From Ctena decussata (lineage: Eukaryota; Mollusca; Bivalvia; Lucinida; Lucinidae), in the NCBI GenBank assembly GCA_963989385.1, contig OZ022506.1, forward strand, positions 5,621,415-5,685,414: a stretch of DNA of 64,000 nt. The letters are read 5' to 3'. The position numbers and the translations under genes were made by a program. Each line of letters begins with the position of its first letter. Within the stretch, counting starts at the first letter, position 1. Shown piece by piece: positions 12,741 to 63,313 of the stretch. A model generated the notes under the pieces. The model saw nothing but the letters and a program-made list of their open reading frames with translations, was not told where the DNA came from and searched no databases.

Positions 12741-14994
12741 TTAATAGCCGTTTCCGTTTCTGTAGCCATTTCCATTGCCGTTTCTGTATCCATTGCCATT
12801 GCCGTTTCTGTAACCATTGCCATATCTGAAACCTCTGCCATATCTGAAACCATTCCCATTACCATTTCCGTAGCCATTACCGTTTCCATTTCCGTAGCCA
12901 TTGCCATTTCCATAGCCATTACCGTTTCTATAGCCATTGCCATTTCCGAAACCATTACCATTTCCGTAGCCATTGCCATTTCCGTAACCATTGCCATTTC
13001 CGTAACCATTGCCATTTCCATAACCATTGCCATTGCCGTAACCATTATCATTACCCCAATCGAAACCGTTGCCATAGCCATTACCGTATCCGTTTCCGTT
13101 TCCCCATCCGTTACCATTTCCGTATCCGTTACCATTACCGTATCCATTGCCATTACCGTTTCCATTACCATTCCCACGGTCATACCCGTTACTGTTATCG
13201 TTTCCATTCCCTTTGTCCCCGTTGTTGTCATTATCGTTGTCTTCTTCGCCTGAAAATCGATTATCCCAAATAACCAGAAAACATTTAATCTGCACTATGA
13301 TGATGTAGAGTTTAGAGTTTATTAGTTATACAGTAGGCAAAAGGCACATGAGTACACCGTTTTAACAACATATAGCAATACAATGAACAATGGTGATCTA
13401 TGTAAACAAGAAAAATATACATATCAGCATGATTAAGCATAAGTACAAATACAATCCAACACGTGTTCTAACAAATTACAAATTTCCAAACATTTGTATC
13501 CCGAATTGAGCATAGACAGTGTCTGCTTAATTTAGCATAAATCGAATTGAATATCTTCAATAAACTTTACCATTACATACAGCTACAGATAAGATGAGGT
13601 TTTGAGGAAAATCCAGAAGCAACCCCTCCCGCCCTCCAACGAATGCACGCGCTGCTATCCCTCACCAGAATCGTCTCGTCGAGACGACTCAAATGAGCGG
13701 CCGCAGCACTCACTTCCATGGAGAACCAGGAGAAAACAAATTCCCAATCTTCCCCGTTACCTCTACCCATCTGGAAGACTACTGCAGTGAAGATTAAATA
13801 AGTTCTTAATGAATACCCTCCGGAGGCAAATTTAATTTGCGATAAGTTTACGATTTGGTAAATAAACTGGCAGACTTGAAGATTTTGGTGCATCGGTGCG
13901 CGACCTATTCTCTGTCTTTGTTATAAGCATCATGTAGTCCATGATCCTCTTTGTTAAATAAATGAGACGCAACGCGACAAAACCAACAATCTGGCTGTGC
14001 GCTCAGCGCAGACTCAGATCAGCCTGGGCATCCGCCCAGTCTGTTAAGAGTCTTCGCTGTCCGCATGAAAGTAGCTTAGTCCCTTAGCTACCTTAAAGTG
14101 CTTAGCGAAGCGTCTGATCTGACTGGGAAAATGCCCAGGCTGATCTGAGTCTGCACTGGGCGCACAACCACATTGTTTGTTTTCTCGTGTCTCGTTTTCT
14201 CGTGTCGCGGCTCAAATTGCAATCAAAGTAAATAAGGCAATGATCAGGAACCGATACAACCGACTTAAATGAAAAAGGCAGACAATGGGCACCATGACAT
14301 AGTTGCTAGGGTAAACCCGAGTAATACCAAGATATTCCTCGGCCTACTCGACCCGAGCAATACCAAGATATTCCTTGGCCTACTCAACCCGAGCAATACC
14401 AAGATATTCCTCGACCTTCTAGACCCGAGCGATACCAAGATATTTCTCGGCCTACTCAACCCGAGCAATACCAAATTATTCCTCGGCCTGCTCGAGTAGG
14501 CAGAGGAATATCTTGGTATTGCTCGGGGTAACCAAAGTAGTTATGCCAAATGTGCCCATTAATGATTGGAAAACAAAGCAAATCAAAACATGCCAAAAAT
14601 CTAAAATTCACCTCTTTCTCTGCAGATAGTAACGAGGCTGTCCTAAACAGGAAGTCAAAGACTAAAAGAAAGCCGACTATAATAATAATAATAATAATAA
14701 TAAGGTCGAGTCGGGTTACTTCAGACAGCAGTTTAAGTTCGGACATACCATTGCAAACACTGAAAGTCCAGATGAGACGGCTCATAATGAGCCGTCCCAT
14801 CAGGATTTTCACTGCTCGACCAGTTAATTTTGTTATAATTCAAAACAACTGACTTATAAAGGAAATAATGTCACTATCCGATTTTACCTGCTGTCCGAAA
14901 TTACCCAACTCGACCCTAATAATAATTATACAAAATTCCTACCTATGGCGATTCCAACAACCACCAGCAGTAGCAAGCAGAGTCTGTATTCCAT
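12741..14994 (-). CDS. Gene A: secreted Gly-Asn-Tyr repeat protein, 186 aa, 2 exons
   Basis: Exon 1 is 14994-14943, encoding MEYRLCLLLLVVVGIAI plus the first base of a Gly codon; its donor is GTAGG. Exon 2 is 13249-12741, after acceptor TTTTCAG, and ends at TAA (12743-12741). The joined length is 561 nt, exactly 187 codons with stop. Residues 1-18 form a signal peptide (MEYR, hydrophobic core, GIAIG). The mature part opens acidic (EEDNDNDNN), then runs as GNGNGYGNGNGYG-type repeats with occasional W, F, D and R; Tyr recurs every 6-8 residues, and the C-terminus gains Arg (FRYGRGFRYGNGY). There are no cysteines after the signal. Such proteins are seen among mollusc shell-matrix, byssal and mucus proteins; which applies here is not known. 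Start, signal exon and 5'UTR match genes B and C. The 1.7-kb intron holds a MITE, the 36-bp repeat and an (AAT)n-linked foldback. Confidence 0.85.
13963..14214. mobile_element. Foldback MITE, family B, copy 4
   Basis: In the intron of gene A. The right end carries a short internal duplication (TTTCTCGTGTCTCG before TTTTCTCGTGTCGCGGCTCA), making this copy slightly longer than its relatives. Confidence 0.85.
14322..14525. repeat. 36-bp tandem repeat, 5 copies, closed by an inverted copy
   Basis: The unit CCCGAGCAATACCAAGATAT TCCTCGGCCTACTCGA occurs five times in a row from about 14322 to 14495. It is followed immediately by the inverse of one unit (GAGGAATATCTTGGTATTGC). The array can therefore fold back on itself. 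The 12-codon pattern PSNTKIFLGLLD is a by-product of a period divisible by three and is not evidence of a gene. Confidence 0.85.
14680..14917. mobile_element. (AAT)n tract and foldback MITE, family M, copy 1
   Basis: (AAT)n at 14680-14702 borders an element whose left end AGGTCGAGTCGGGTTACTTC matches the inverse of its right end (AGGGTCGAGTTGGGTAATTT). The middle holds GAGACGGCTCATAATGAGCC. A related, SINE-interrupted copy lies at 60004-60413. It is in the intron of gene A. Confidence 0.7.
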
Positions 14995-15047
14995 GTTGGC
15001 TGCAGTACCTAGCTTGATCTCTCTGACTAACGGGGACATGTGTGGCC

Positions 15048-15055
15048 ATTTTATA
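15048..15055 (-). promoter_or_regulatory. TATA box of gene A
   Basis: TATAAAAT on the minus strand, 54-61 bases before the ATG. It is followed by a 5'UTR containing ATCAAGCTAGG and ACTGCAGCCAAC directly before the ATG, both shared with gene B and the second also with gene C. Confidence 0.7.
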
Positions 15056-15059
15056 CAGA

Positions 15060-15430
15060 TCTGACAACATTTTGATACATGCGTTTGTTGACAGTTTGGC
15101 ATTAACATGACAGTTTTACAAGAGCAACAAGGAAAATCAAAATGAAATAGTTTAAAAATAAATATTGATCATAATAAAAGTTTAGCTGAATCCAATTTGC
15201 ATAATAGATGCATACTTGTTTAACAAGTGCAACTGAGTGTGTGACACATATGAGGCAAAATAAAGTTCTGTCAAAAATAATCATTGGCTTATTAAAGTCA
15301 AAAATACAAATAATTAAATATGTTTAGAAAGTAAACTTGTAGTTGCCCAGGCGTAGAAAATAAGTGTCAACTGAGGGCATGGGATATTATGCTGAAGACA
15401 ATGCAGCAAACAAAAACAATATGATTGTGG
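15060..15430. other. 5' flank of gene A with upstream segment shared with gene B
   Basis: On the minus strand, ATGCAAAT (15202-15195) is followed by TTTTATTATGATCAATATTT, TTTTTAAACT and CATTTTGATTTTCC. The same order, with substitutions, is seen upstream of gene B from 32937. This looks like a conserved proximal promoter. ATGCAAAT is the classical POU-factor octamer; use by the gene is inferred only. Confidence 0.5.
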
Positions 15431-25669: not shown

Positions 25670-28600
25670 TTAGTTCCAGTCGTTGCCATTTCCCCAACCA
25701 TTGCCATTTCCCCAGCCGTTGTCATTCTCCCAACCATTCCCGTTCTCTCGGCCGTTTCCATTCCCCCAATCATTTTCCCAGTCATTACCATTTCCATTAT
25801 CGTATCCGTTGTTGTTGTTTTCGTCACCTGGAAAGAGTACACAGTAATAACGGGTTTATATAATAGCGAAAGAAAACTGGAAAAATTAAAAGTAAGAGAA
25901 TTTTCAGGAACTGACAAAAGGAGCTGGAAAAAGTAAAAGTAAGCAGGAAAAGCCTTTTCAGGAACTGCCACATCAAACCCAGACCCCACCCTAGACACCA
26001 TCTGGGAAAAAAGACAACAAAAAATTAGTCACCATCAAAGGCGTTATCAGCGGCAGCTATGTAAATGGTTCTTTCCAATGTTGGTGTTAACCTGGCTAGA
26101 CTTAACACCACAAACAATGTATCAATAATAGACGCTGCAGCACACACCACATAGAACAACCAAGAAGAACCAAAACAGAAGTGCCGCCTGGGACGGCCAG
26201 TGATGAAATTGCTGGGTTGGGGAAGGGGGGGGGGGGTCGAGGGGCTTAACCGGTTTGCGCTCTAACCAACCCTCGCCCTTTGTTCTGTTTTGGTTCATCG
26301 GATACGCATTTGTTCAATTTGCGTGGAAGATGTTAATGTATGAACACTAAATACAAAGTGCCAGTAAATAAGGTTTATTGACAACACTTCAACACTACAT
26401 GCACACTCCAAGAGGTAACGTCATCACTATGACAACATGACGTTGGTGACGTCATAGTACTGTTTAAGTAACTCGACAATTATGATAATGTATAAACATA
26501 GTTGTGTTCCTTATGATGTACATGGAAATTAACAGAAGATTCCTAGATCATATGCGTAATATATCAGAAACATGAAAATCACAATTAAAACCAAGATTTA
26601 ACAAACATGAGGACTCACAGAAATAGCAACACTGAAATTCCGGAGCAGAAGAAACCTACCAGTTAAACCACGGATGGCCCAAGCCAAGAAGTCCCGGAAC
26701 AGGTGTCAGGCGCAAACCGTCTGGCTACTGTTATGTTCGGTTTCGGTCGGTTTGAGGTCCGACCCACCGCCATGCAGTCAAGAGGTATAGAAAGCTGTTT
26801 ACCTTGATTGGGTTAACCGCCATTCTGTCCATTATATTTAGACACTAAGGCCCGATTTAACGTCACCTTAAGCACTCATCAATGACTAGTGTTGCATAAC
26901 GGTAACGGTAAATTATTCGATAACTAAAAGTTAGTCAATGTTGCATAACGGTAACGGTAAATTATTCGATAACTAAAAGTTAGTCAATGTTGCATAACGG
27001 TAACGGTAAATTATTCGATAACTAAAAGTTAGTCGATGTTTTAAGGCGACGTGAAATCGGGCCTAAGTCGAAATGACGTTGATCAAATGTTTTAAGGCGA
27101 CGTGAAATCGGGCCTTAGTCGAAATGACGTTGATAAAATTTTGAAAACGCTTTTTTGAGAAACTTTATTACGCATTTTATGTCATAAACATGACTGGACA
27201 CACGAGCAAAATGTATAAGCTGAGAAATATAAACACCATAGGATGTAAAATGAGGAACAGCGCTATCTAAAGATGGAAAATTAACAATATCAAAATCATC
27301 TCGCTTATCGTAAATTTTGGTTGTGACATCCGAAACAGATAAATATGAATAAAAAAAATGAGGCCTCGGTATCTGAGACGCTGGCCTTATTCAACTGAAT
27401 TTCAGAAGGGTAGATTTGATTGGCCATGCTATCAAAGAAGTTATTGTCAATATTCAATAGGTCATCCAGATACCGAGAAGTAGAATGGAAAGCTTCAATA
27501 ACTTCAGATTGGGTGTCCCCTGAAAGAAACATCATGAAGTCTCTCTCATAACAGAATAAAAACATATCAACTACAAGAGGGTCACAATTAGTGCCCATAG
27601 GAATACCTACAATTTGTCTATATATTTAAGAGCCAAATCTGATATAAATTTTGTCCAAAAGAAAGGTGAGAGCTTCACACCCTTTCTGACAACACCATAA
27701 ATCATAATTCTTGACCGCTTCTGAGGTAAAGAAAGTACGCCTATCAATACATGCAATATATAGAGAGCCTTCCCTTTGAAAAACTCTTTCAGTTAAATTT
27801 TGGTTGGTTGATTGTTTTGGGTTTAACGGCCCTTTGAGACAGTATTTCAGTCCATATCGGGCCGTCTCCCAGAGAGAGGAAGAAAGATAAAAGAAATGAT
27901 AGACGACAGAAAAAAATCCAAACTACCCACCCGCACCTACCGCAAGCACAGTGGGCCCTTCTTTTATCCAAATATGTAGGACGCCCCGGCACTGGAAGTT
28001 ATAACAAGCACCATCGCCGGACCCCCCCCCCCCCCCCCCCCCCATTTCAGTTAAATTCGCTATTTTATCCTTAATAAGATTGTGGGACAAGGTAATATAA
28101 TGTCGAAAAATCCCCGAAAAAATCATTTGTAGACAAACTGGACGAACGAAAACCTTGTGGTTTCAGCTTATGTATCATCCCATATGAATTTTTAAGTGAC
28201 CAAAAAATCTTTTACCTGACCTTTCATACACTTTTTCACAATGTTTAATAACATGATTTTTGATGGCGGTAGGACAAGAAGTAAGCAATTTAGAAAGCTC
28301 GGTAGTCGTGTATGAGCTAGAGTTAGCAATCAATCAAGTCGTATACGGTCGTTTATGAAGTTTAGGTACCAGTAGAATGCAGACAGTCTCTCTTGATCTT
28401 CATCATATTATCTAAACGAAACGATTTAGTGTCCAAAAACACATGCTGTTTTGTCGGAATTGTAGTTGTGGACGCTGCATTTGTAAGAAAGCTGTTACTC
28501 TCGTTCAGAGAGGCTGTTAAGGTCGCACTACTATTTGTCCAATTTATATCATTATCGTCTATCAGTCTTGGCGATGTAAATGTGTGAGCTGCACAGACTG

Positions 28601-31600
28601 CAACAAATGTCCTACCCATAAATATATTTGCATATACCGGTGCTTTCTTTTAGCCCTTAGATATGTATCGGAGCTGAAGATCTAAACTGCTGTACTTTAG
28701 TAAGAGAGTGAGCAGTTTGAACAGAATCTGAGGCGATTGTTTTAATTGACTTTTCCTTCCAATAAGTCATGGCATGCCTGGATGCCATCCTCATGCAAAA
28801 TGTTGGTTTAAAGGATTTGACATGAATATCACATCATACACATCAACGCCACCTGTGTACATTGTAGCTGCCCACTTTGCTTCCTATTATGTTTTCCGAT
28901 AGAAAAATAGAAAATAGGTAAAAATAGATGTTTAATGTTTTCGAATAATATATTCTTATTGTCCAAAATGATGCTTTTTTGGTCAGTTGTGTGGATGGTA
29001 ATTGTTTTATGTTCACCAGTAACCTTTCGTTGACCGTTCCAAGCAGTTACTTCTGTTGTGGTTCCTCAGTGTTACATACTGCTATGTCTCCTTGTCTATG
29101 GTCTCTAGCAGTCTGGTCCCCTGAATAGCTGCCCATTCTGCTTTCTGTTTTGTTTTGTTTTATAATTTAAAATAATAAAAAGGAAAAGAAAGATTGCTGC
29201 TGTTTTTCATTTGGGTAGCTAAACAACCACCATCTTTGGGAAAGAACTACTCATTCGGTTTACTGTGCGTGCCTTTCGTGATTTTTGTCAATCTTTTTGT
29301 GTGTGCTTCTTTCTCTTTTAGTTTTGAGAGTGGGATTTGATAGTATTAATTCCTTATCATTGCCTATCTTTTTATTTTGAACATGAGTATGAAGATCCAA
29401 TGCAATAAATTCTGTTTTATTATTATTATTTTTTATTTATTTATTTATTTATTTATTATCTATTTTATTTCATTTTATTTTTTTTGTATGATGGCACAAA
29501 ACAGACCAGTACGTTGTCGATTATAGATTCACCAAGAACAACACAGAGAAAGTGTACATCAATACAACACCTCTATTTCTATTCTATTCTATCCCATCAC
29601 CTTACTTGGTCGTTGGGGCACCACAGATGACTTCAAAACAATCCTTTTCCACTTTGTCCTGTCTTCAGCTGCCCTAGTGGAGCTGGTAAAATCCATTCCT
29701 GTCCACTCCTTGATATTGTCTTCCCACCTCTTCTTCTGTCTACCTCTTCTTCTACTTCCTTTCACTGTGCCCTGAAGAATTGTCTTTGCTAAACCAGAAG
29801 ACCTTGAGACGTGGCCAAACCACCTAAGTTTCCGTTTCTTGACCAGCGTAAGGAGTTCATCATATTCTCCAATGGCTGCTTGGATCTTCCTGTGAACCTC
29901 CTCATTGGTTATATGGTCCTTGTACGATATGTTCAGTAACCTTCGGTAGTATCTCATCTCAAAGGCCTGCGTTCTTTTCTCTAACTCTGCTGTCAAGGTC
30001 CATAATTCACAGGCATACAGAAATATAGAAATGACCAGGAAGCGCATAAGTTTCACCTTTGATCCAAGAGATATATTGTTATCTCTCCAAATTGGTTTCA
30101 GCTTAGTAAGAGCTGAAGTGGCTTGTGCAATCCTTGAGAGAACCTCTTGTTTTGAGCCATCATCTGAGACAACTGCTCCAAGGTATTTGAAGCTGCTTAC
30201 GGTACCCAGCTTCTGCCCTTTTACCTAGATCTCCCTCAGGATGCCGTCTGCGCTGTTCGTCATCAGTTTGGTCTTCTCAGCACTGAGCTCCATCTTATAC
30301 CTTGTGCAGGTTTGGTCGAGACTTTCAACTAGAGCTTCCAGTTCCTGCTCTTCCTCAGCTAGAGCATCTATGTCATCGGCAAACCGCAGATTGGTAATGT
30401 TTCTGCCACCTATGCTAACCTTTCCTTCATGTTCTTCCAGAGCATCATACATGATCCGTTCGAGAAAAATGTTGAAGAGGGTGGGTGACAGAAGACATCC
30501 TTGTCTTACTCCAACTGTTGTTCTGAACCATTCTCCTGTGCTGCCATTTATCAGGACTGCACTTGTAGCCTTGTCAAATAGCTGCTCAATGGTGCGAACT
30601 AGATTTGCACTGATATTGTACTTCCGCATGGTGGCCCATAAGGCTGCATGCCATACCCTGTCAAAGGCTTTTTTGAAATCAATGAAGACATGGTACAAAT
30701 TCTGCTGATGTTGGAGATACTTTTCACACAGGATTCTAAGGTTGAAGATTTGTTCTGTGGTGCTCCTTCCTGCTCGGAACCCAGCCTGTTCCTCAGCAAT
30801 TATCTCCTCGGCTTGTGGTTTAAGCCTGTTCAAGATGACTTTCAGCATGACTTTGCTTGAATGACTGATGAGGCTGATGGTTCTGTGGTTCTGGCAGAGC
30901 TGCAACACCTCAAAAACCGTAGAAATACATAAAACACAAATTACATCCATTTTACCTATTTTCTAATTTAAGGTCGGATGCGGCCTAAACAGGACCTAGA
31001 GGCATATGCAGCCTTGCAAAAAAATGAATGTTTAAGAAGAATCCGAGTCTCCGATTTTTTTCTTTTCTATGTGTTTTTCGTTTCCAAAAGCAACCATTAT
31101 AAATGTAGGTACAACTGACTTTATTGCAGCTAGCCTTAAGTGCCGTGTGGCGACCTGTACTTCATCACAGTGCAGATTCAATTTTTCATTTATCACTGAT
31201 GAGCCCATTACTGTAACTTGCAAAAGCGAATACCGCTTTAACTCGGCGCTAGAGATCGGGGCATGTTGGTGGATGGGGCGGGGGAGGAGGGCGTATGCAG
31301 CCTTAAAACAGAAACACCGTTTTTTTGTCCTCAGTTAGTGTAGTGTTGAAAGGAAACCTTCCATTTTGCATAGGTAAATAACAAATAGAACAAACTTCAG
31401 AAGGTTTAACATCACCAAAACAAAACACAGTGCGTCTCAAAAAACGTGGACCTTTCTTGAAATTGCTGTATTTCCTTTATTAATCAAGAAATCTTTTTTC
31501 AAAATTGTGTTTGGTTGTAGGAAAATGATACTACTTTGCTCTGGTAAAGCTTCTTTTTAAATCAGTGCTTCAACAGAAAGTGACGTAATAATGACGTCAA

Positions 31601-32676
31601 ATTGTATCTATGACTTTATTCTATATTCAGTTGGTGACACAATTAGCTACAAGCTACTATTCCTTGAGGCCCACTTAACAAAATATACTTAAGGACAAAA
31701 GTTCTGCACGGATGTTAAATTAAAATTCCGTGCAGAACTTTTGTCCTTAAGTATATGTACAAATGACAATAATTTCTGTAGTCCACACCGTTGAAAACAC
31801 AAAATGGCATAAAGTGAAAAAGTACACAGCTTCAGGAAGTTCTCAGGTCTGCATTTTCAGGTAACAAACATTTAACATATGTCAAGTAATGAACGAAAGT
31901 GAAAAAGGGAACCGAGTGGTCAAATGAGCTGCTTTGTTATGTTTGAATTGGGCTGTTCGTGGCTATACCTGAAAGTTTAGCAGGGAAAAGGCAAGTAGAG
32001 TCAAACAAAGTTATTTTCAAAATTCATTAAAGAAATGAAAATGGCAAAGCACTGAATATTATCTTGCCATTTTCCTTTAAGTTTCGTACCAACGACTTTC
32101 ATGTTTTGACATGATTCGGTTCATTTTCAATGACCTTGAAGAAAATTTTATGTTGGCAAACAACTTCCCTGCTAAGTAAGCTCTACTTTTTTATTATGAA
32201 CATGCCATTTCGTCTTAGGTCTTTAAACCAAGACTGAGACAATTCGGCATCTGACATTGTCCTTCTTTCCTGGAATATTAGCCTTGGAACGCTTTGAACT
32301 TAGTTTTTATTTCACTTGAGGCCAGTTTGCAGTTTCAGCAGCACAGAAAACAGGAAATGAAATCAAGTATAAGCCTGCAACCTTATGACGCCACTTCCTG
32401 TAAACAGCGCCACCTGATGATAAAACTTTATTGGTGAAAAGGGGTATCAACTTGCTACAATCAAAGAAAATATGAAAAGTTTCCTCCGTATATAAAGGAA
32501 CTACAGCAATTTTATAAAATGTTCACGATCTTTTTAGACAACCTGAAATTCACTCTGTGTGCTGTAAGGTGTGATGGACATGCTCGTCTAATGCTCATAT
32601 ACAATAAGGTTTATGTCCTACCTGTTGCGAGACCAACGACCACCAACATTAGAAGCAATCCGATTCTGTATTCCAT
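25670..32676 (-). CDS. Gene B: secreted Gly-Asn-Trp acidic protein, 70 aa, 2 exons
   Basis: Exon 1 is 32676-32622 (MEYRIGLLLMLVVVGLAT plus the first base of a Gly codon; donor GTAGG). Exon 2 is 25827-25670 (acceptor CTCTTTCCAG; stop TAA at 25672-25670). The joined length is 213 nt, exactly 71 codons. The signal peptide is residues 1-19. The mature part opens GDENNNNGYDNGNG and has six tryptophans in DW/GW steps among GNG and END units. It has no Cys and no Lys, and acidic residues dominate. The frame stays open for four more codons (NENG) after the TAA, so the stop may be recent. The 6.8-kb intron is long because it holds a Penelope-like fragment, an RTE-like LINE and several MITEs. The pairing of the exons rests on phase, the shared design with genes A and C, and strand; a nearer second exon cannot be excluded. 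Confidence 0.75.
25828..26160. other. Intron of gene B, unassigned part
   Basis: A+T-rich sequence with no recognisable repeat or exon. The minus-strand frame running into exon 2 from here is the intron read-through upstream of the acceptor. Confidence 0.4.
26160..26828 (-). mobile_element. Penelope-like 3' tail, minus strand
   Basis: Read on the minus strand, it begins VNPIKVNSF (last codons of the element's frame), then CTGGTAGGTTTCTTCTGCTC, GAGTCCTCATG and further tail blocks down to the G-run near 26224-26237. It is separated from the Penelope-like coding fragment on its right by the MITE at 26845-27118. Confidence 0.55.
26845..27118. mobile_element. MITE with internal 49-bp (x3) and 51-bp (x2) tandem repeats
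   Basis: The left end CTAAGGCCCGATTTAACGTC faces GACGTGAAATCGGGCCTTAG. Inside, GTTGCATAACGGTAACGGTA starts units at 26891, 26940 and 26989 (49-bp period), and TGTTTTAAGGCGACGTGAAA starts at 27037 and 27088 (51-bp period). The right end lies within the Penelope-like frame just after codons for FYQRHF, so the MITE inserted into that element. Confidence 0.75.
27119..28345 (-). pseudogene. Penelope-like element reverse transcriptase, degraded, SINE-interrupted
   Basis: On the minus strand, from 28345 leftward: KLHKRPY and LIANSSSYTTTELSKLL; after a SINE insertion (27800-28044), the FTSEAVKNYDLW region, GTNCDPLVVDMF, then the catalytic stretch SRYLDDLLNIDNNFFDSMAN, and finally KIYDKRDDFDIVNFP and YGVYISQLIHFAR in a shifted frame. 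Such enzymes copy the element's RNA into chromosomal ends or breaks. Several stops and frameshifts make it non-functional. Assignment to the Penelope-like group rests on the PMGTN...YLDD arrangement and is probable rather than certain. No GIY-YIG nuclease motif was seen. Confidence 0.65.
27800..28044 (-). mobile_element. SINE-like element, family A, with 13-bp target duplications
   Basis: TTTCAGTTAAATT flanks both sides (27787-27799 and 28045-28057). Read on the minus strand, it runs from a G run, CTTCCAGTGCCGGGGCGTCC, then GGTAGGTGCGGGTGGGTAGT and CTGGGAGACGGCCCGATATG, to a tail ending GTTAAACCCAAAACAATCAA. Variable-length duplications point to LINE-dependent retroposition. It interrupts the Penelope-like frame, so it is younger. 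Confidence 0.75.
28346..28860. other. Gene B intron, unassigned
   Basis: The minus-strand frame 28619-28362 is Ser/Thr/Asn-rich and could be an upstream part of the Penelope-like element, but no motif confirms it. The remainder is non-coding. Confidence 0.35.
28860..29395 (+). mobile_element. Penelope-like 3' tail
   Basis: GCCCACTTTGCTTCCTATTA, GAAAATAGGTAAAAATAGATG, CAGTAACCTTTCGTTGACCG, GGGAAAGAACTACTCATTCG, GTGGGATTTGATAGTATTAA. A longer match is the copy at 55205-55665. Confidence 0.5.
29400..29480. repeat. (ATTT)n / (ATT)n simple repeat
   Basis: ATTATTATTATTTTTTATTT and following TTTA units. Non-coding. Confidence 0.85.
29574..30902 (-). pseudogene. RTE-like LINE, 5'-truncated, with 9-bp target duplications
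   Basis: One long minus-strand frame with a single in-frame TAG near 30227. Motifs in order: CQNHRTISLISHSSKVML, EEQAGFRAGRSTTEQIF, VFIDFKKAFDRVW, GVRQGCLLSPTLFNIFLE, the catalytic RFADDIDALAEEE, SAEKTKLM, then LYACELWTLTAELEKR, RKLRWFGHVSRS, RRRGRQKKRWEDNIKEWTG and a stop at the end of PSKVMG. A GAATAG-type repeat tail follows directly. CAACACCTC flanks both ends (29565-29573 and 30903-30911). Upstream endonuclease sequence is missing. Apart from the TAG the frame is intact, so insertion into the gene B intron may be fairly recent. Clade is assigned from overall resemblance only. Confidence 0.8.
31010..31680. other. Gene B intron, unassigned with possible Tc1-type terminus
   Basis: CAGTGCGTCTCAAAAAACGT at about 31429 resembles a Tc1/mariner terminal sequence, but no matching partner end was found nearby. 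The frame at 31032-31338 is not recognisable. Confidence 0.3.
31683..31756. mobile_element. Perfect 30-bp inverted repeat with 14-bp loop
   Basis: ATATACTTAAGGACAAAAGT + TCTGCACGGA is followed, after TGTTAAATTAAAAT, by its exact inverse. It is probably a tiny MITE or the fused ends of a deleted transposon. Confidence 0.8.
31757..32618. other. Gene B intron 5' part, nothing recognised
   Basis: A+T-rich sequence lying just after the exon 1 donor on the minus strand. No repeats or exons identified. Confidence 0.4.
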
Positions 32677-32732
32677 ATTGGCTGTGCAGTGCCGAGCTTG
32701 ATACTTCTGATCGACAGGGCAAGTCTGTAGTC

Positions 32733-32739
32733 CTTTTAA
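32733..32739 (-). promoter_or_regulatory. TATA-like box of gene B
   Basis: TTAAAAG on the minus strand, about 60 bases before the ATG, at the position TATAAAA holds in genes A and C. The following 5'UTR has ATCAAGCTCGG and ACTGCACAGCCAAT just before the ATG. Confidence 0.5.
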
Positions 32740-33120
32740 CTAAGAGTTTTAGTGTATATTTCTCAAGGACTCGACATTAGATTAAAATATATTCTTGCTT
32801 GTTTTTCCTATAGACAGATTACAACGCCAGATTGACAGTTATAGCACTTTGTTTATTGGAAAAGAAGCAGAAAAACAAAATGTCAGTTTTAAAATGATAT
32901 TGATAATAGAAAGAGTCAAATCAGTACTCATTTGCATTTTTGCACCATTCTATTTTTACACAGCACAACTGATTACATGACAACTTAAAATATCAAATGC
33001 TGAATTAATGTAAAAAAGACTTATTAAATGATTCTGAGGTCTGAGGGGGGAGGGGGGCGTGCGTTGTCAGCCGAGACTTCCAAAACAATTTCGTCAGTTT
33101 TGTCATGGAAGTGCACAATA
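32740..33120. other. 5' flank of gene B with segment shared with gene A
   Basis: Minus-strand ATGCAAAT (32937-32930) is followed by CTATTATCAATATCATTTT, AAAACTGACATTTTG and TTTTTCTGCTTCTTTT, which align with the gene A flank. The rest is A+T-rich and has no gene. Confidence 0.5.
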
Positions 33121-37853: not shown

Positions 37854-39628
37854 TATACCCCCGCTTCACTGCTTAAATCAAATGGTGTTATTTGCGTTAC
37901 AATAACCATAGAAAGAGAACTCATTGTCACCATGTATACCAAATATCAACAAACTTCTATGTAATACGGAATAAAATGATTTCACATTGAAAGAAAGAAA
38001 AAATAATAAATACATGTAAGACATAAATCTTTATCAGTCTGTATACCAAATATGAACATTCAAACTTGAATGGTTGCTGTGAAATCTGTTACAAAAAATT
38101 GCATTATTCAAAGTCCAGAGAGAAAGAAAATTGAAAAAATATAGGGAAGAATAAGCAGGAGAAGACTGGTTCTCAATCCCACAATACAACAAGTTATCAT
38201 TAACCTGCATACAAAATATCCCTACTCTAACTTACAGATGCATAGAAATCTTTTGCAAAAATTTCATTATTCAAAGTATGGAAAGAAAGAAAATTGGACA
38301 AAAACAGGGAAGAATAAGAGGAGTAGGCCGATTTGCACTCTCACAATACAATAAGCTTCGATTCACCTACATAACAAATATGTCTACTCTAGCTTGAACG
38401 GTTGTGGAGAAATCTTTGACGAAAAATTTCTTTATTCAAAGTATGGACAGAAAGAAAATTGGACAAATAAAGAGAAGAATAAGAGGAGAAGGCCGGTTTG
38501 CAATCCCACGATTCATTGAGTTGTCATTTACCTACATCCCAAATATGACTACTCTAACCTGCACGGTTGTGGAGAAACCTTTGACGAAAAATTTCATTAT
38601 TCAAAGTATGGAAAGAAAGAATATTCGACAAATACAGGGATGAATAAGCAGGAGAAGGCAGGTTCTCAATCCCACGATACAACATGTCGTCATCAACCGG
38701 CATACCAAATATGACTACTCTAGCTTGCACAGTTGTGAAGAAATCTTTGACGAAAAATTTCATCATTCAAAGTATGGACTGAAAGAAAATTGAACAAATA
38801 CAGGGAAGAATAAGCAGGAGAATGCTGGTTATCAATCCCAGGATACAACATGTTGTCATCAACCTGCATACCAAATATGACTACTCTAGCTTGCATGGTT
38901 GTGGGGAAATCTTTGACGAAATATTTCATTATTCAAAGTATAGAAAGAAAGAAAATCGGACAAATACAGGGAAGAATAAGCAGGAGAAGGCTGGTTCTAA
39001 ATACCACAATACAACATGTTGTCATGAACCTGCATACCAAATATGACTACTCTAGCTTATGGTTGTGGAGAAATCTTTGACAAAAAAATTCATTATTCAA
39101 AGTATGGAAAGAAAGAAAATCGGACAAATACAGGGACAAATAAACAGGAGAAAGCTGGTTCTCAATCCCACAATACAACATGTCGTCATCAACCTGTATG
39201 CAAATATGACCAGTCTAGCTTATGGTTGTAAAGAAATCTTTGCCGAAAAATTTGATTAAAAGGTGACGGAAGAACGGTTGGTTGGTTGGTTGATTTGATG
39301 CTTAACGTCCACGGTAAACAACTAAGGTCATGTCGGGACGGTCAGTTAACCTAACAACACTATTCCTGGGCAGGCTTAGACCTCCTAAGCGGTTAACCAG
39401 TACTAAGTGCACATACTTTCGCCAGTAACTGACAACTGCCCTTCTTGAATCAGCGGAAGGAGAAACGAAAGTATGTGGCCAGACCGGGATTCGAACCCAG
39501 GACATCTGACTTACGAGTCAGGTGCCCTACCGATTGCGCTACCCGGCCCAGCCGGAAGAACGGAAGAACGACGGACGGACGGATAGATGTAAACCAGTAT
39601 ACCCCCACTTTTTCAAAGCGGGGGTATA
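37854..39628. mobile_element. Tandem-repeat-cored element (pearl/Helentron-like), ~166-bp unit x8
   Basis: The ends TATACCCCCGCTT (37854-37866) and AAGCGGGGGTATA (39616-39628) are inverted. The core repeats a unit containing CATACCAAATATGACTACTC, GAGAAATCTTTGACGAAAAA, ATTCAAAGTATGGAAAGAAA and AATACAGGGAAGAATAAGCA. The anchor falls near 38041, 38208, 38370, 38535, 38701, 38867, 39033 and 39197. A GACGGACGGACGG run precedes the right hairpin. A SINE interrupts the right end. This layout matches non-autonomous bivalve elements with satellite cores. Confidence 0.75.
39278..39553 (-). mobile_element. SINE, family D, full head, with 10-bp target duplications
   Basis: GGAAGAACGG flanks both sides (39268-39277 and 39554-39563). 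Read on the minus strand, the head GGCCGGGTAGCGCAATCGGT, CTGACTCGTAAGTCAG, TGGGTTCGAATCCCGG folds as a tRNA. The anticodon loop CTCGTAA is one base from tRNA-Met CTCATAA. The body and the tail GACGTTAAGCATCAAATCAA follow. The sister at 60485-60757 keeps CTCATAA. Confidence 0.8.
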
Positions 39629-52980: not shown

Positions 52981-55200
52981 TTAGGGTTCCTGCCTGAATC
53001 TGCCACTGTCTTTAATAAATTTCAAAACTGCAAGTATGATATTGGTATTAGTTTCTACAGTAAAGTCTGGGCTGCCGTTGACCAATAGATCTAAACTAAT
53101 ATTCGGTACTGTATTTAAAGATAAAAATAATGTGTTGCGTTGATCATTGTAAAGATTACATTCGAATAAGTAGTGTTTTGTATTTTCTACATTAGCTCCG
53201 CAGTCACACGCTGGGTTTTGTATAATATTGACTCTGTAAAGATCTGCATGCAGACTACTACATGAATGCCTAATTCTAGTTAGTAAAATGCTATACTTTC
53301 TTTCGCCAACGAACAGATAACTGGGCGCTTTACTTGGTATGTTCCTTATACTTCTTTTAAAAACTGAGAGAGATTCTGAATTTCGTGTCTGTAAATCAAG
53401 ATGATTCCAAAGGCTTGATGTAGAAGGAAAAAAGGATGATTCAAATGAGCACAGTCGTGAAAAGGGTATAACAAAATTTTGGCTCTTTCTTAAATTATAA
53501 TTAGTATTGTTGTTTATTGTATTTGGTAAAAGCTCTTGAAGATAAGGCGGCGCATCATTATTTACTATTTTATACATTAAACTAAGTTTTTTGTTTTTTT
53601 TTTCGTCTTCCTGTTAAGGTTTCCCAGCCTGTTTCAAGGTAGAGCGAATTTAATGATGCGAACATAGGCAGACCGGTTACTATTCGTGCAGCATTTAGTT
53701 GAACTTGCTCTAATCTGTCACTATCTTTTTGATTGCAACCATCCCATACTTCACTCGCATACTCTTATAGCGGTCGAATATAGACACAATACAATTTATT
53801 TAATGTTTGACCAGAAAATTTATATTTTATCTTTCTTAAAAATGAAATTTGTTTGGTAGCCGATTTTATTAGAGTTTCAATGTGATTCGTCCATTTGTGG
53901 TTAGATGATAACACAACGCCTAAGTGTTTATGAGTGTTTACTATTTGTAGGACCGTATCGTCTATAGTAAGTTCTATGTTTTCCTCAAAATAAATGTTAG
54001 AAATAAACATGACTTCTGTTTTAGAAGGATTAAATGTTACTAATCATTTTTTGGCCCAATCATTAAGTTTGTTCAGATTTTGGTTCATAGTATGTTCGAT
54101 TTCCATGGGGTCAACTGAAGAAAAGCTTAAAAAGGTGTCATCGGCGAATAATCGTGCCAGAGAAGTTAAGTCATCAGAAATATCGTTAATATACAACAGA
54201 AACAATAACGGTCCTAATACAGAACCATGAGGAACACCGGCTGTAACAGATTTATATTCTGAAGAAACACCATTTAGAGATACCTTTTGATTTCGATTAG
54301 TCAAATAATTCTGAAACCGCTCCAAAAGACCTCCTTTTATTCCGTAATTTTCTAACTTTAAAATAAAACCTCGGTGCTATACACGGTCAAATGCTTTAGA
54401 GATGTCACAATATATTTGGCAGTTAATTTCGTGAATTTCTAGAGCTAAACAGGTATGATGGATAGCTTCGATAAGGTGGTGAACGGTAGAGTGACCTGGT
54501 AAGAAACCCGATTGATACTTATGAATAAGTGAATTGGTTAAGAGATGATTATATACATTTTTAAACACAATTTTTTCAAAGGTTTTTCCAACACAACTAG
54601 CAAGGGAAATTGGCTGATAATTACTAACAATGGTTTTATCACCTTTTTTAAAAATTGGCTTTACGCCCGCAAGTTTCCACAGACTTGGGAAAGAGTGTTG
54701 TTGAAGTGACATATTAAACAGACAACACAATGGTTTAGCGACGGTATTACTTGTATATTTCAACATTTTATGGCTAATACCATCAGGGCCGCTCGCCTTA
54801 TTTACTTTCAAAGTAGACAATATATCAGTTACCTTCGACTGGGTAATAGTTATGTTTTGAAGAGAAAAATCAGTTCTATTTAATGCTATATTTGCGTCAT
54901 CGATAGAAGATATAGAACAAAAATAACCATTCAAAGCAGTTACCTTTTCGTCATCGTCAAATGCGTAATTCTCATTCGTCTTTTTTTAAGGGTGGAATTA
55001 CCGAACATGTATTATTCTTTCCCATAAACCGTCCCATTAATTGCCAAAACTTTTTATTACCATTCTCTCCATTTAGTATGATATCTTCTAAGTTATCATT
55101 GTAATTTTCTTAAGCATATTTTTTCATATTATTGACATGATTTCTTTGTTTTTTTATACCGGTTAAGATTTTATCGTCTAAATTGACGCGTTCTTTGGTC
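52981..55200 (-). pseudogene. CR1-like (Jockey superfamily) LINE, 3' part, degraded
   Basis: On the minus strand, in order: NGNKKFWQLMGRFMGKN (linker), DILSTLKVNKASGPDGISHK, FPSLWKLAGVKPIFKKGDKT, PISLASCVGKTFEKIV, HKYQSGFLPGHSTVHHLIEA, YCDISKAFDRV, then GVPHGSVLGPLLFLLYINDI, the catalytic RLFADDTFL (near 54145), HKHLGVVLSSNHKWTNHI, LRKIKYKFSGQTLNKLYCVY, and a C-terminal CxC..H..C block (NPACDCGANVENTKHYLFEC). The end is FIKDSGRFRQEP and stop at 52981. At least three frame breaks separate the blocks. The N-terminal endonuclease is missing, cut at a Penelope-like tail near 55205. Confidence 0.8.
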
Positions 55201-55684: not shown

Positions 55685-57194
55685 TACTCGTCAAAACAAG
55701 AAACGCCGCTTTTTTAAGTTACAGTATTAATATAGATTTTGAGCGTTCAAAGTGTGTTTGATATCTGCTGGTTATCGTTATTTCCTTCATACTGTACACA
55801 CACCATACATTTATTGTGGTAAGTCAGCCAAGACGCCTGAATGGGAACATAGTGCGCTTTTCCGTGTTTTTCGAGAACGGGGATTCTCTGTAAGTTACAC
55901 ATGTACAAAATCCTAAAAATAGAAAGGTGGACGATTTTGTTGTACAGAAACATGGAAACATGAGGAATTAAATGTAACTAAGCAATGCCAAGTCTGTCTG
56001 AAGTCGAATGCGAAAGGGCCATAGGAACGCTTCAGGCTAACGTCAGTGTTTCAATTATTAATCGACAGTTTGAATGTCACGAAAGGGCAATCGAACGTCT
56101 AAGAACACGTTTTCGGCAAACTGGGACTACAAAAGACCATCAGCGTGCTGGCCTCCCCGTGTTACGACGCCGCGGCAAGACAGGTACATAAGGACGTCAC
56201 ACCTTCGCAATCATTTCCATCCGGCCACAGTCACTACAAGAACGACGCCAGGACGTCATAATGCGAGAATCAGTGACCAAACAGTGAGAAACCGTTTGCG
56301 CGAGCACGGCATCAGATCTCGCCGTCCTTATGTTGGACCCAAACTAACGTTACGTCATCGCCATAACCGAATGCAGTGGGCCAGAACACATCAACGCTGG
56401 ATATTATAGTAATGGCACCAAGTAGTTTTTGGTGATGAATTGCGTTTCTGCTTAGAAAGTAGTGACGGACACCCTCGGGTATACCGACGTCGTAACTAGA
56501 ATTTGACGGACGCTTGAGTCTCGGAAAGGGACCATTATGGCGGAGGTTCTGTAATGTTTTGGGGATGAATTTCCTCTGCTCGTCGTACAAGACTGATTCC
56601 TCTACAAGGGAATTTGACTGCCGCCGCTTATCGAGACAACGTTTTGGCTGCGGAAGTGGTTCCTTTTGTTAACGCACATCCTAACGTTATTTTCAGCAGT
56701 ACATTGCGCCCTGTCACACGGCTAATGTTTCGCGAATTATCTGAAAAACAATAATATGAATGTGCTACCTTGGCCGTCCAAAAGCCCAGACCTGAACCCT
56801 ATTGAACATCTTTGGGACATTGTAGACAAAAAGATCAGAAGTCTTCCTGTTGTGCCTCAAACTCTGCCAGCACTAGAACAATCACTTGTCCGTGAATGGA
56901 ACTACGTCACTCGGTATGAAATGCGAACTCTATATCCTCCATGAGGAGATGCTGTACCGCAGTCCGACTCAGAGCAACGAAGGACACACCCGTTATTACT
57001 TGGTGTGAATTCGAGACATGACCCCTAGCCTGGCGTAAGCTTTAACACGCTTCACTACAGGTTAGAAACAGACTAATATGACATTTTTCTGATGGAATTT
57101 GCTTTCGGTTTGACTGTTTGCTTTATGAATAAATTGAAGAACTTCTGAATAACAAGCAGTGTTTTTGTGGCTGCGTTTCTTCTTTTGACTAGTA
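55685..57194 (+). mobile_element. Complete Tc1-like transposon with TA duplication, inactive
   Basis: TA flanks both ends (55683-55684 and 57195-57196). Terminal repeats: TACTCGTCAAAACAAGAAAC and inverse TACTAGTCAAAAGAAGAAAC. Length 1510 bp, usual for the group. The transposase starts at 55985 (MPSLSEVECERAIGTLQANV, a helix-turn-helix region). It continues in a second frame (TPGRHNARISDQTVRNRLRE), then VVFGDELRFCLESSDG around the first catalytic position, VMFWG and the block WPSKSPDLNPIEHLWDIVDK holding the late acidic region. The middle catalytic block after HPNVIFSS is corrupted. Several stops and frameshifts make the enzyme non-functional, but the ends could still be cut in trans. Confidence 0.8.
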
Positions 57195-58336: not shown

Positions 58337-58597
58337 GCGTTGTTGTTTTACGTCCACGGTAAACAGCTATGGTCATGTCGGGACGGTCAGTTACCCTAAC
58401 TGCACTATTTCTGGGCAGGCTAAGACCTCCTTAGCGATTAACCAGTACTAAGTGCACATACATTCGCCAGTATTTAACAACTGCCCTTCTTGAATCAGCG
58501 GAAGGAGAAACAAAAGTATGTGACCGGACCGAGTATCGAACCCGGGACCTCTGGCTCCTGAGTCAGACGCGCTACTGACTGCGCCACGCGGTCCGGC
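58337..58597 (-). mobile_element. SINE, family D
   Basis: On the minus strand: GACCGCGTGGCGCAGTCAGT, CTGACTCAGGAGCCAG, GGGTTCGATACTCGGTCC (tRNA-like head), then GAAGGGCAGTT, CTTAGCCTGCCCAGAAATAG, CCGTCCCGACATGACC and CCGTGGACGTAAAACAACAA. Confidence 0.75.
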
Positions 58598-59370: not shown

Positions 59371-59439
59371 GTATAACTAGAAGACTCATAAGTCTTCACC
59401 ATAATGTATATGTTTGCAGATGGACAAAAGCATGACATT

Positions 59440-60413: not shown

Positions 60414-60484
60414 TACATCTCATGTCTTCTCTTCTATGCTTCATCCCCATATGATTGCTTTTCATCTCAATATAATTATTTTGA

Positions 60485-60757: not shown

Positions 60758-61426
60758 AATAATTATTATGTTTGTCTGGCTTTTAGGGTGATGTTGGGAG
60801 CGGGTGTCAGGGAAAGGTGGATGGAGCTTGTAAATGTCAGTTTTGTATGTTATGTCATACACTGTATATGTTTTCGTATCGTCGTTTGTCAGTTGCTCGT
60901 ATGTTGTACTTTACCTCATGGAAATAAGTCAACCTCATTCAGTACAGAGCTGACCACACTTGTGGAACACCAGTTATTTCTTTTCTTTGCAACTCATTTC
61001 TTCACTGGATCTCCCTGCCGGGCAGACACTTGCAATAGTCATATTTAGCAAATTGAAGGCCCTGACTAGACTGTGCAGATGCGCAGGTTGTCTGTGTCTA
61101 TGTTCGCACCTGCCTTGCACATTCTTCTTATGACTCATTTTTTTCTGCCCTTTACCGTTGTTTTATCTTTTTCAAATACAAAATGTAGATCACTGGTCGT
61201 AAATTTAAACGACAATCGATCAATCAGCGTTTGCATTTAACTTGCTGACACTGCACAATGTATGCACATTAAAATTTAGCAAAATTCTATCTTCATCCGT
61301 CATCTTTTTTCCCCAAAATCTTATCTTTGTGTGTGCATTTTTCTTGTCGGAAACCCACATAACTGACATTTTCCTTTTCAACAAAGCCGCTATTATGTCA
61401 CTTTTTATCCTAAACAAGGAATCTCG
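60758..61426. other. 5' flank of gene C, no other gene recognised
   Basis: The frame at 60788-61048 has no motif. AGCGTTTGCATTT at 61227, about 265 bp before the gene C start, resembles the octamer seen upstream of genes A and B but in the other orientation. Confidence 0.4.
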
Positions 61427-61436
61427 TATATAAAAG
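61427..61436 (+). promoter_or_regulatory. TATA box of gene C
   Basis: TATATAAAAG, 60-69 bases before the ATG, followed by a 5'UTR ending GTTCTGCAGCCAACATGG as in gene A. Confidence 0.75.
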
Positions 61437-61495
61437 AGACCCGCCGCAACAGCCCAGGCCCAGTAGGAAGCATTGAGCACTGTTCTGCAGCCAAC

Positions 61496-63313
61496 ATGGA
61501 ATACAGACACTGCGCATGCGTGCTGCTGCTGCTAGGTGTTGTAGGAATGGTGTCAGGTAAGCAACCAGTCGTTTCGATATACGGGAACTTACACGAGTGG
61601 TCTTTTCATATGAAATTTATGATTCGAATTATGATTATCATATGAAATGACCACGAGTGTAAGATTCTGTTTATCATATGACCTTTAAAAATGGGATTTT
61701 AATGCCTTCAGTTTGAACGCGCCAAAATGTTATCACACGTGTGTTCATAGAGGATCTTACATGAGTGCCCTTGTATTATTGAATTTATTAAGCGAGTTGG
61801 GGAAAAAGATAAGATGCGAGGCTCTGCCGAGCATCTTATCGTTTTCACGGACGAGTTTAATAAATTCAATGTTACACGAGCACGAATGCAAGATTCTATT
61901 TATCATATGACACCAAAAATCGCATTTTATTTGCAGATTTTGCACTAAAACGTCACGATTTTGCCATGAGAAAACGCGATGTTTTATGGACGTCAACGCA
62001 TAACGTTACGGAATAATTTGCATATTTAATCCACTAGTGAATTATCATTTTTAATGTATGGCTTTATTACACTCTCAGATGCGACGTCATATGATAAATA
62101 CCATTTTTATGACATGACGTTATCCACTAAATAACAGCGACGTCATATGATAAAAGAAATTATGTTTATATTTTATCTTTATCCAAACTGTGGCAAGCTT
62201 ATAAGATATTCAGGTACAATTGCTTCCTTTCCAGTTTTGTCTCCCTTCTAAAGGGGAGTCAAATCTTTAAGGAATGAGTTTGCTCCCTGAGCGAAATTTT
62301 TGGAACAGCGCAATTTGTGCATGGAAGCTAACAAACTGTCTAATATCACCATCTAATATCACCAAAGTATTATTAGTATCCAAATATTTAGCATGAGATA
62401 CCCCGTCAATCGCACAGTCCACACTGGATATCGTGCTGTGATTAGTTAGACAGAGCATGGTTCGTCCACCTGCACGGTAGATAATTTACTCGCTAAAGCT
62501 CGTGAATTATCTCTCCGCACTTGCGGACATGTCTATCTTTCACTTGTCGTGTGTGTTTTACATTCTTCTTTCTTCTTTGTCATGGCTGAGTTGTAGCTGT
62601 TTCATTATCTTTATAATTATCATAAATATTATTATTATTTGTACATGTAATTATCACTATTATTATTGTTATTATGTGGCCGGTCTCTCTTTCTCTTACA
62701 CACACAAATACGCGCGCGCACACACGCACATAAATTCACGATATTTTAGAGACGTATAAGGTGTTCTCTCTCTTCCTTTGCCAAGCGTCCCATAAAAAGG
62801 ACATAGGCAAACAATGCAGACACAGAGCAGACGCCGCAATACGCGGCGTCTGATCAGGGTCTACACTATTTGCATAAGATAAATTGGTATTTTGCTTAAA
62901 ATAAAATTAAAATAGAATAAAACTAAACTAGAGATCCCTTAATTGACAAATGGACTTATCCATTTGATAAAAATGGATAGTCCACTGGGCATAAATGGAT
63001 TAACTAACTGTAAAAAACAATCATATTAACAGGAGGTAGTCCAGATTATTATAATCAGAGAGATTACAGTACAGATAGAAGAGACGGTAGGGATTACGGA
63101 TATGACAGCAGAGATTCCGGATACAACTATGGAAATTACGGCTATAATTATGGAAACGGTTATGGCAACTATGGAAATGGACGAGGCAACTACGGAAATG
63201 GTTATGACAGCTACGGACGTGGCAACTATGGTAACCGTTATGGCAGCTACGGAAATGGTCGAAGCAACTACGGAAACGGACGCGGCTACAGTGGTTATGC
63301 ACGTGGTAAATAA
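61496..63313 (+). CDS. Gene C: secreted Gly-Tyr-Arg protein, 113 aa, 2 exons
   Basis: Exon 1 is 61496-61556 (MEYRHCACVLLLLGVVGMVS plus the first base of a Gly codon; donor GTAAGC). Exon 2 is 63033-63313 (acceptor ATATTAACAG; stop TAA at 63311-63313). The joined length is 342 nt, exactly 114 codons. The signal peptide is residues 1-21. The mature part starts GSPDYYNQRDYSTDRRDGRD and becomes (N/S)YGNG-type repeats with about 21 Tyr and 11 Arg, ending YARGK; net charge is positive and there is no Cys. AATAAA at 63520-63525 is a plausible polyadenylation signal. It shares start, leader, splice phase and 5'UTR with genes A and B, but the mature chemistry differs: basic and Tyr-rich rather than acidic. 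Tyr/Gly-rich secreted proteins of this type occur in shell matrix and adhesives; actual use is unknown. Confidence 0.85.
61590..62200. mobile_element. Foldback sequences in gene C intron
   Basis: TTGAATTTATTAAGCGAGTT near 61778 is mirrored by CGAGTTTAATAAATTCAA near 61851, with GATAAGATGCGAGGCTCTGC facing GAGCATCTTATC between. CATATGATAA-type motifs recur at about 61670, 61904, 62091 and 62137, partly inverted. Probably one or two nested MITEs. Confidence 0.55.
62600..62725. repeat. (ATT)n and (CA/CG)n simple repeats
   Basis: ATT-rich tract at 62610-62675 and CACACACA/CGCGCGCACACACG at 62699-62728, in the gene C intron. Confidence 0.8.
62781..62885. mobile_element. Foldback MITE, family C, copy 2 (inverted)
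   Basis: GGACATAGGCAAACAATGCA, GCAGACGCCGCAATACGCGG + CGTCTGATC, CTACACTATTTGCATAAG. It is the inverse of copy 1 at 58829 and lies in the gene C intron. Confidence 0.65.

What the first reader, a model, noticed from the sequence alone, without database searches (positions are those of the whole stretch)
12741..63313. Three dispersed genes share one leader exon and promoter but encode different low-complexity secreted proteins
Genes A (12741-14994), B (25670-32676) and C (61496-63313) all begin ATGGAATACAGA, have a MEYR-type signal peptide, and split inside the Gly codon at the predicted cleavage site. Exon 2 then diverges: G/N/Y repeats, G/N/W acidic, or G/Y/R basic. Splicing gives exact codon counts of 187, 71 and 114. 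This is a constant-secretion-leader, fast-evolving-mature design, as in venom or adhesive families. I do not recognise it as a named family, and it could be a new set of clam matrix or mucus proteins.
Basis: partly seen in the sequence, partly recalled or inferred. Interest (0 to 1): 0.88.

Follow-up and report, generated by a model that had tools for sequence, protein, structure and literature searches.

The report
Clustered secreted glycine-asparagine-aromatic repeat protein genes
Three genes within 51 kb carry closely similar leader exons and each is predicted to encode a small secreted protein built mainly of glycine, asparagine and tyrosine or tryptophan repeats, likely a duplicated family of structural matrix proteins of the sort known from bivalve byssus and shell, with no animal relative found in the databases searched here.

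Summary
The sequence observation holds. Genes A (-), B (-) and C (+) each have a leader exon (52, 55, 61 nt) with a predicted signal peptide. Each leader ends in a phase-1 GT donor inside a Gly codon, and joined to an AG-acceptor exon gives an intact frame of 186, 70 and 113 residues. A whole-window scan finds three G/N/Y/W-rich stretches, exactly these; 40 shuffled windows gave none. Two claims need correcting. (1) A and B are one design: both repeat a hexapeptide GNGNG-aromatic, Tyr/Phe in A and Trp in B. C has a 7-residue unit, GNYGNG(R/Y). In A and B third codon positions drift while the amino acids are kept, so the mature part looks conserved, not venom-like. (2) A ~170-bp upstream module is clearly shared by A and B only. 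The best reading is a duplicated family of secreted structural proteins, working like mussel thread-matrix, Dbfp9 or shematrin proteins. Asn-Gly is over-represented in A (48 of 54 Asn) and B (11 of 19), which predicts spontaneous deamidation into polyanions. Expression, tissue, species and splice junctions are untested. New member of a known kind.

The parts
14943..14994 (-). Gene A exon 1: leader MEYRLCLLLLVVVGIAI plus first base of split Gly codon, donor GTAGG
12741..13249 (-). Gene A exon 2: 169-residue mature part counted from the split Gly, GNGNG(Y/F) hexapeptide repeats, TAA stop included
32622..32676 (-). Gene B exon 1: leader MEYRIGLLLMLVVVGLAT plus first base of split Gly codon, donor GTAGG
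25670..25827 (-). Gene B exon 2: 52-residue acidic mature part, (G/E)N(G/D)NGW hexapeptides, TAA stop included
61496..61556 (+). Gene C exon 1: leader MEYRHCACVLLLLGVVGMVS plus first base of split Gly codon, donor GTAAG
63033..63313 (+). Gene C exon 2: 93-residue basic mature part, GNYGNG(R/Y) 7-residue period, TAA stop included
14995..15034 (-). A proximal 5' region (-40..-1) shared with B and C
32677..32716 (-). B proximal 5' region (-40..-1) shared with A and C
61456..61495 (+). C proximal 5' region (-40..-1) shared with A and B
15050..15055 (-). A TATAAA, 61 bp before ATG (candidate TATA box)
   Evidence: function inferred
32733..32739 (-). B TTAAAAG, 63 bp before ATG (weak TATA-like element at the same place)
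   Evidence: function inferred
61429..61434 (+). C TATAAA, 67 bp before ATG (candidate TATA box)
   Evidence: function inferred
15116..15285 (-). A upstream module homologous to B (-291..-122), holds ATGCAAAT at 15195-15202
32856..33025 (-). B upstream module homologous to A (-349..-180), holds ATGCAAAT at 32930-32937
61262..61269 (+). C ATGCACAT at -234, one base off the octamer-like string of A and B
   Evidence: marginal similarity to A

Best explanation
Genes A, B and C carry closely similar leader exons and are predicted to be paralogous two-exon genes for small secreted proteins of glycine-asparagine-aromatic repeats, which likely work as structural components of an extracellular secretion (byssus, periostracum/shell matrix or mucus). 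Shown here: the similar leader exons and proximal 5' flanks, intact frames across the predicted junctions, no Cys in the mature parts, repeat units of A and B kept at amino-acid level while silent sites drift, an A-B upstream module, and a strong Asn-Gly excess in A and B. Inferred: the family arose by gene duplication; the leader is cut at the split Gly; the flexible Gly-rich chain is packed in secretory vesicles and sets outside the cell through its regularly spaced Tyr/Trp (stacking, DOPA or quinone cross-links) and Arg-aromatic contacts in C; the many Asn-Gly pairs of A and B deamidate with time, turning near-neutral A (net -1) towards a polyanion (-49 if all NG react) that could bind Ca2+ or the basic paralogue C (net +4).
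For: Frames and junctions; the shared leader with 5' flank; the A-B upstream module, score 241 against a maximum of 156 elsewhere in the window and 0 of 300 shuffles; exactly three G/N/Y/W-rich stretches, each paired with one leader, 0 in each of 40 shuffled windows. Repeat periods of 6 codons (A, B) and 7 codons (C), with third-position drift in A and B (A lag 6: 0.80/0.86/0.48; B lag 6: 0.78/0.64/0.31); C at lag 7 gives a weaker contrast (0.56/0.71/0.44). Within chosen units (16 in A, 6 in B, 4 in C) pN/pS is 0.06, 0.15 and 0.13, but the units were picked by protein pattern, which biases the ratio down. No Cys in any mature part; charges -1, -9 and +4. NG dipeptides are 48 of 54 Asn in A (0 of 2000 shuffles), 11 of 19 in B (2 of 2000) and 5 of 14 in C (690 of 2000, not enriched). 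Published relatives in design: mussel TMP-1 consensus GYGYGNYGYGY and quagga Dbfp9 with GNYG motifs, an acidic N-terminus and a basic C-terminus (PMC6474901 passages); the NG domain of nacrein/N66 (PMC6599672 passages); shematrin-like proteins in zebra mussel mantle (PMC9210306 passages).
Against: No transcript, proteome or tissue data, so secretion, splicing and role are unproven. No metazoan relative was recognised: three searches gave only P0001, P0002 and P0003, which look bacterial by eye, with unrelated leaders. C is tied to A and B by leader, proximal flank and composition only; its repeat period, charge and NG content differ, its upstream region does not match B's and only marginally A's, and its acceptor has a poor pyrimidine tract. 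Other phase-1-compatible AG sites lie near the acceptors of A and C, so the exact junction there could shift. The deamidation step is chemistry from recall and does not apply to C.
Confidence: 0.6

Rival explanations
1. The genes encode glycine-rich defence peptides: short secreted chains that kill microbes, as clustered glycine/tyrosine-rich peptides do in nematodes (nlp-29/caenacin type) and spiders (acanthoscurrin type).
For: Small size, predicted signal peptide, clustering and a basic G/Y/R chain in C (+4). The resemblance to nematode and spider peptides is recalled.
Against: B is acidic (-9) and A near neutral (-1), and A becomes strongly anionic if NG sites react, unlike most membrane-active peptides (recalled). 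The long repeat array of A suggests a bulk polymer.
Confidence: 0.15
2. The proteins belong specifically to shell mineral matrix: Asn-Gly-rich A and B act like the NG domain of nacrein/N66 or N14, holding Ca2+ and limiting crystal growth.
For: Regular NG pairs; the NG domain of nacrein/N66 is reported as a regulator and Ca2+ concentrator (PMC6599672 passages).
Against: No carbonic anhydrase domain and no Pfam match above cut-off in A, B or C. No Cys in the mature part, where N14/N16 have conserved Cys (recalled). High Tyr/Trp fits tanned or adhesive material as well.
Confidence: 0.2
3. The leader exons are copies spread by a mobile element or segmental duplication, and the G/N-rich exons are chance simple repeats that are not translated.
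For: The window is rich in transposon fragments and dispersed repeats; A's exon 2 is a tandem array at DNA level.
Against: Outside the 5' side, leader and exon 2, introns and 3' flanks share only short matches, plus one dispersed repeat between the 3' flanks of B and C. Third-position drift in the arrays shows coding constraint in A and B. All three frames stay open through a stop at the end of the array.
Confidence: 0.05

Closest known systems
[quoted passage not shown]
   Same: Gly/Tyr/Asn-rich repeats in a secreted byssal protein; the reported consensus GYGYGNYGYGY (PMC6474901 passage) is close to C's YGYNYGNYGYNYGNGYG. Asn-Gly instability of TMPs is recalled; that paper is not held.
   Different: TMP-1 is listed at 35 kDa (PMC5343498 passage); mature A, B and C are 17.0, 5.7 and 10.4 kDa. 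No sequence-level homology was tested, since no TMP sequence was in hand.
Quagga/zebra mussel foot proteins Dbfp9/Dpfp9 (Dreissena byssus)
   Same: 38% Gly, 22% Tyr, 10% Asn, GNYG motifs, acidic N-terminus (PMC6474901 passages); many duplicates of Dpfp9 (PMC9210306 passages).
   Different: Dbfp9 repeats are (Y/S)GYPGN with Pro and a GGGG-rich end; here Pro is one residue in C and absent in A and B, and the unit is GNGNG-aromatic.
Shematrins and KRMPs (pearl oyster mantle)
   Same: Duplicated secreted families; [quoted passage not shown] KRMP1 and gene 006605 keep signal peptide and Lys-rich region but differ in C-terminal repeats (PMC3120837 passages).
   Different: No Lys-rich region here; Asn is a main residue; the leader is joined by a phase-1 intron to a wholly repetitive exon.
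NG domain of nacrein/N66
   Same: Long Asn-Gly-rich stretch in a secreted protein (PMC6599672 passages).
   Different: There the repeat is Gly-Xaa-Asn and is joined to carbonic anhydrase domains; here the hexapeptide stands alone and carries an aromatic residue.

Membership tests
Repetitive low-complexity secreted proteins of bivalve byssus/shell (broad kind) | Signal peptide followed by a low-complexity repeat domain | tested here: met
   Hydrophobic leader and G/N/Y repeats in all three; the signal peptide is judged by hydropathy and the -3/-1 rule (recalled), not by a trained predictor
Repetitive low-complexity secreted proteins of bivalve byssus/shell (broad kind) | Paralogues differing in repeat motifs | tested here: met
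   GNGNG(Y/F), (G/E)N(G/D)NGW and GNYGNG(R/Y)
Repetitive low-complexity secreted proteins of bivalve byssus/shell (broad kind) | Expression in mantle or foot, presence in byssus or shell | not testable with these tools
   No expression or proteome data; species unnamed
Thread matrix proteins (TMP) | Sequence homology to Mytilus TMP | not tested
   No TMP sequence held; only the consensus seen in a passage
Shematrins | Gly-rich mantle protein, basic, tandem repeats | tested here: inconclusive
   C is basic (+4); A (-1) and B (-9) are not; mantle expression unknown
Nacrein/N66 | Carbonic anhydrase domains | tested here: not met
   No Pfam family above cut-off in A, B or C
N14/N16 (pearlin) | Conserved cysteines in the mature part (recalled) | tested here: not met
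   0 Cys in mature A, B and C
Glycine-rich antimicrobial peptides | Microbicidal activity, cationic chain | tested here: inconclusive
   Only C is cationic; activity not testable

The most novel reading that the evidence does not exclude
The cluster is a self-timing secretion kit: one duplicated leader cassette feeds a nearly neutral Asn-Gly polymer (A) that turns itself into a strong polyanion by uncatalysed deamidation after release, a short acidic Trp-rich companion (B) and a basic Tyr/Arg-rich partner (C), so that setting or swelling of the material by polyanion-polycation pairing is clocked by the density of NG pairs written into the repeat.
Probability: 0.12. Interest if true: 0.75.

Novelty: new member of a known kind. 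Interest (0 to 1): 0.42.

Why it matters
If expressed, the family adds a very simple building unit (GNGNG plus one aromatic residue) to the bivalve secreted structural proteins and gives a natural Tyr-versus-Trp comparison on the same backbone (A versus B). The extreme Asn-Gly density makes the idea of programmed deamidation in a secreted material directly testable by mass spectrometry. It also gives a small, well-defined gene set for asking how repeat proteins keep their composition while their silent sites drift.

Tried and rejected
Homology search: C alone, 0 hits at E up to 0.01 among 247 candidates. A residues 1-60, 2 hits at E up to 1 among 2707 candidates (P0001 E 2.5e-3, P0002 E 0.53). 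The A/B/C alignment, 1 hit at E up to 0.01 (P0003 E 5.7e-4) among 7988 candidates, a capped list. All three look bacterial by eye (P0001 a charged middle with GN-rich ends, P0002 a two-repeat protein, P0003 an Ala-rich leader) and were set aside as convergent low complexity; their organisms are not named. Pfam at E up to 0.01 gave only TrAA12 for A, below its cut-off (19.6 against 30.9 bits), nothing for B or C. Solved structures: one chance antibody match for C (E 0.73), none for the alignment at E up to 1. The exact 23-nt leader string had 0 matches in viral contigs. Six peptide or leader strings had 0 matches in the paper library. The ten paper searches listed no paper that I recognised as describing this family; of the listed papers I saw listings, abstract starts and, for ten, passages only.

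Rejected: venom-like hypervariable mature part; one shared promoter for all three; mobile-element origin of the leader. The first promoter test, fixed intervals against 300 shuffles, gave for -350..-121 A-B 0, A-C 22, B-C 128 of 300, and for -120..-41 A-B 102, A-C 12, B-C 53 of 300; the later test against real places in the window agrees, and its -120..-41 interval is not significant for any pair. No structure prediction was run, since such chains would give an uninformative model.
Full report
OBSERVATION. ATGGAATACAGA is present at exactly the three stated places. Reading the flanking DNA and joining the stated exons gives intact frames: A 186 residues, B 70, C 113. All three junctions are GT-AG, phase 1, and split a Gly codon (G|GC, G|GT, G|GA). 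A whole-window six-frame scan for G/N/Y/W-rich stretches returned three places, which are the three exons 2; 40 dinucleotide-shuffled windows returned none. A scan for leader exons by general features (ATG, early basic residue, hydrophobic core, phase-1 GGT donor) also returned exactly the three. It is not significant alone: 40 shuffles gave a mean of 1.0 and a maximum of 4. Without the basic-residue rule there are 10 real rows, some overlapping, against a shuffle mean of 2.3 and maximum of 7. The weight lies on shared sequence: for the 40 nt before the ATG only 0 to 2 of 1265 other places in the window score as high, for every pair (0, 3 and 6 of 300 shuffles), and whole leader exons score above every one of 500 shuffles. 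With the first 12 nt removed, A-B (107) and A-C (91) still beat all shuffles, B-C (56) does not. Besides the junctions used, phase-1-compatible AG sites lie near the acceptors of A (-45, +6, +9, +39) and C (+3, +12, +30, +42, +51), none near that of B, so the exact joint in A and C is predicted, not proven.

PROMOTER. TATAAA lies 61 bp before the ATG in A and 67 bp in C; B has TTAAAAG at 63 bp. Further up, A (-291..-122) and B (-349..-180) align over about 170 bp including ATGCAAAT, score 241 against a maximum of 156 for 1255 other places in the window. A against C is marginal (124; 34 of 1255 from A's side, 5 of 1255 from C's side) and B against C is absent (507 and 342 of 1255). A narrower interval (-300..-180) weakens A-B (14 and 27 of 1261), as the two modules are offset by 58 bp, and -120..-41 is not significant for any pair. 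So A and B share an upstream module; that C shares regulation is not shown.

MATURE PARTS. A is 41% Gly, 32% Asn, 12% Tyr; B 37% Asn, 29% Gly, 12% Trp; C 28% Gly, 23% Tyr, 15% Asn, 12% Arg. None has Cys. Net charges are -1, -9 and +4. Comparing codons at nine fixed distances without choosing units, A peaks at 6 codons (amino-acid identity 0.69), B is high at 6 and 18 (0.53 and 0.58) and C peaks at 7 (0.46). A and B are thus one hexapeptide design, GNGNG-aromatic, with Tyr/Phe in most A units and Trp in B (of the listed units A has one ending in Trp, B one ending in Arg). At lag 6 the codon positions of A agree 0.80, 0.86 and 0.48, and of B 0.78, 0.64 and 0.31; at lag 7 those of C agree 0.56, 0.71 and 0.44, a weaker contrast. 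In A and B the protein pattern is held while silent sites vary, which speaks for translation and against recent slippage or a free-running mature part. Ratios of pN to pS from selected units (0.06, 0.15, 0.13) point the same way but are biased by the selection.

ASN-GLY. NG pairs number 48 of 54 Asn in A (shuffle mean 22.1, 0 of 2000 reach it), 11 of 19 in B (mean 5.5, 2 of 2000) and 5 of 14 in C (mean 3.9, 690 of 2000). That Gly after Asn is the fastest context for spontaneous deamidation is recalled. If all NG in A reacted, its net charge would move from -1 to -49. In the shell protein Hic74 of freshwater mussels, Asn deamidation in modern shells is reported as slightly below the 50-70% of most archaeological ones (PMC6542584 passages), so deamidation in secreted bivalve material is real, but nothing here shows that it is used.

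SURROUNDINGS. Introns share only short matches; the 3' flanks of B and C share one 226-bp match that is a dispersed repeat of the window. The 6.8-kb intron of B holds a reverse transcriptase fragment (RVT_1, 5.5e-41), and the window is rich in foldback and SINE-like repeats. Within 400 bp of the stop C has AATAAA at 207; A and B have only variant signals.

RELATIVES. Three protein searches gave no recognisable metazoan relative; the three weak hits look bacterial by eye. No Pfam family passes its cut-off. How many animal proteins the protein database holds is not known to me, so absence says little. The window's own genome could not be reached.

COMPARISON. From passages read: mussel TMP-1 has a consensus GYGYGNYGYGY, and quagga Dbfp9 is 38% Gly, 22% Tyr, 10% Asn with GNYG motifs (PMC6474901). 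Zebra mussel mantle expresses shematrin-like proteins that cannot be aligned to pearl-oyster ones, though they share features (PMC9210306). Nacrein/N66 carry an NG domain next to carbonic anhydrase (PMC6599672). Motifs that are gained, lost and shuffled in duplicated secreted families are a described pattern (PMC4897951), and a KRMP-like gene keeps signal and Lys-rich region with other repeats behind (PMC3120837). The present genes fit that kind. They fail the carbonic anhydrase test for nacrein/N66 and the Cys test (recalled feature) for N14/N16; TMP homology was not tested.

VERDICT. A real, small gene family, most likely duplicated, predicted to make secreted structural proteins; ordinary in kind, unusual in the purity of its repeat and its Asn-Gly density. 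My confidence in the paralogous coding family is about 0.9, in a structural extracellular role about 0.6, in a functional deamidation clock about 0.12.

Noticed in passing
window 30228-30962 (-): Reverse transcriptase domain (RVT_1, E 5.5e-41) inside the long intron of gene B, on the same strand; probably explains part of that intron's length.
   Followed up: partly
window 54380-54985 (-): Second reverse transcriptase fragment (RVT_1, E 5.9e-9).
   Followed up: no
window 56074-56406 (+): Tc-type transposase helix-turn-helix fragment (HTH_Tnp_Tc3_2, E 1e-13).
   Followed up: no
window 63689-63931: Near-perfect foldback: two 120-nt arms, 96% complementary, 3 nt apart; related copies at several other places in the window, one inside gene A's intron at 13958-14194.
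   Followed up: no
window 39476-39548 and 58521-58593 (-): Two tRNA-model matches inside a dispersed 264-nt repeat, so likely a tRNA-derived SINE rather than tRNA genes.
   Followed up: no
window 37991-39222: Tandem array with a unit of about 165 nt.
   Followed up: no
window 6744-8468: Long inverted repeat in two adjoining pairs of arms (397 nt at 97% and 147 nt at 99% complementarity), possibly a young mobile element.
   Followed up: no
window 5100-5441 (-): Cys-rich open frame that looks EGF-like by eye, but no Pfam match at E up to 0.01.
   Followed up: partly
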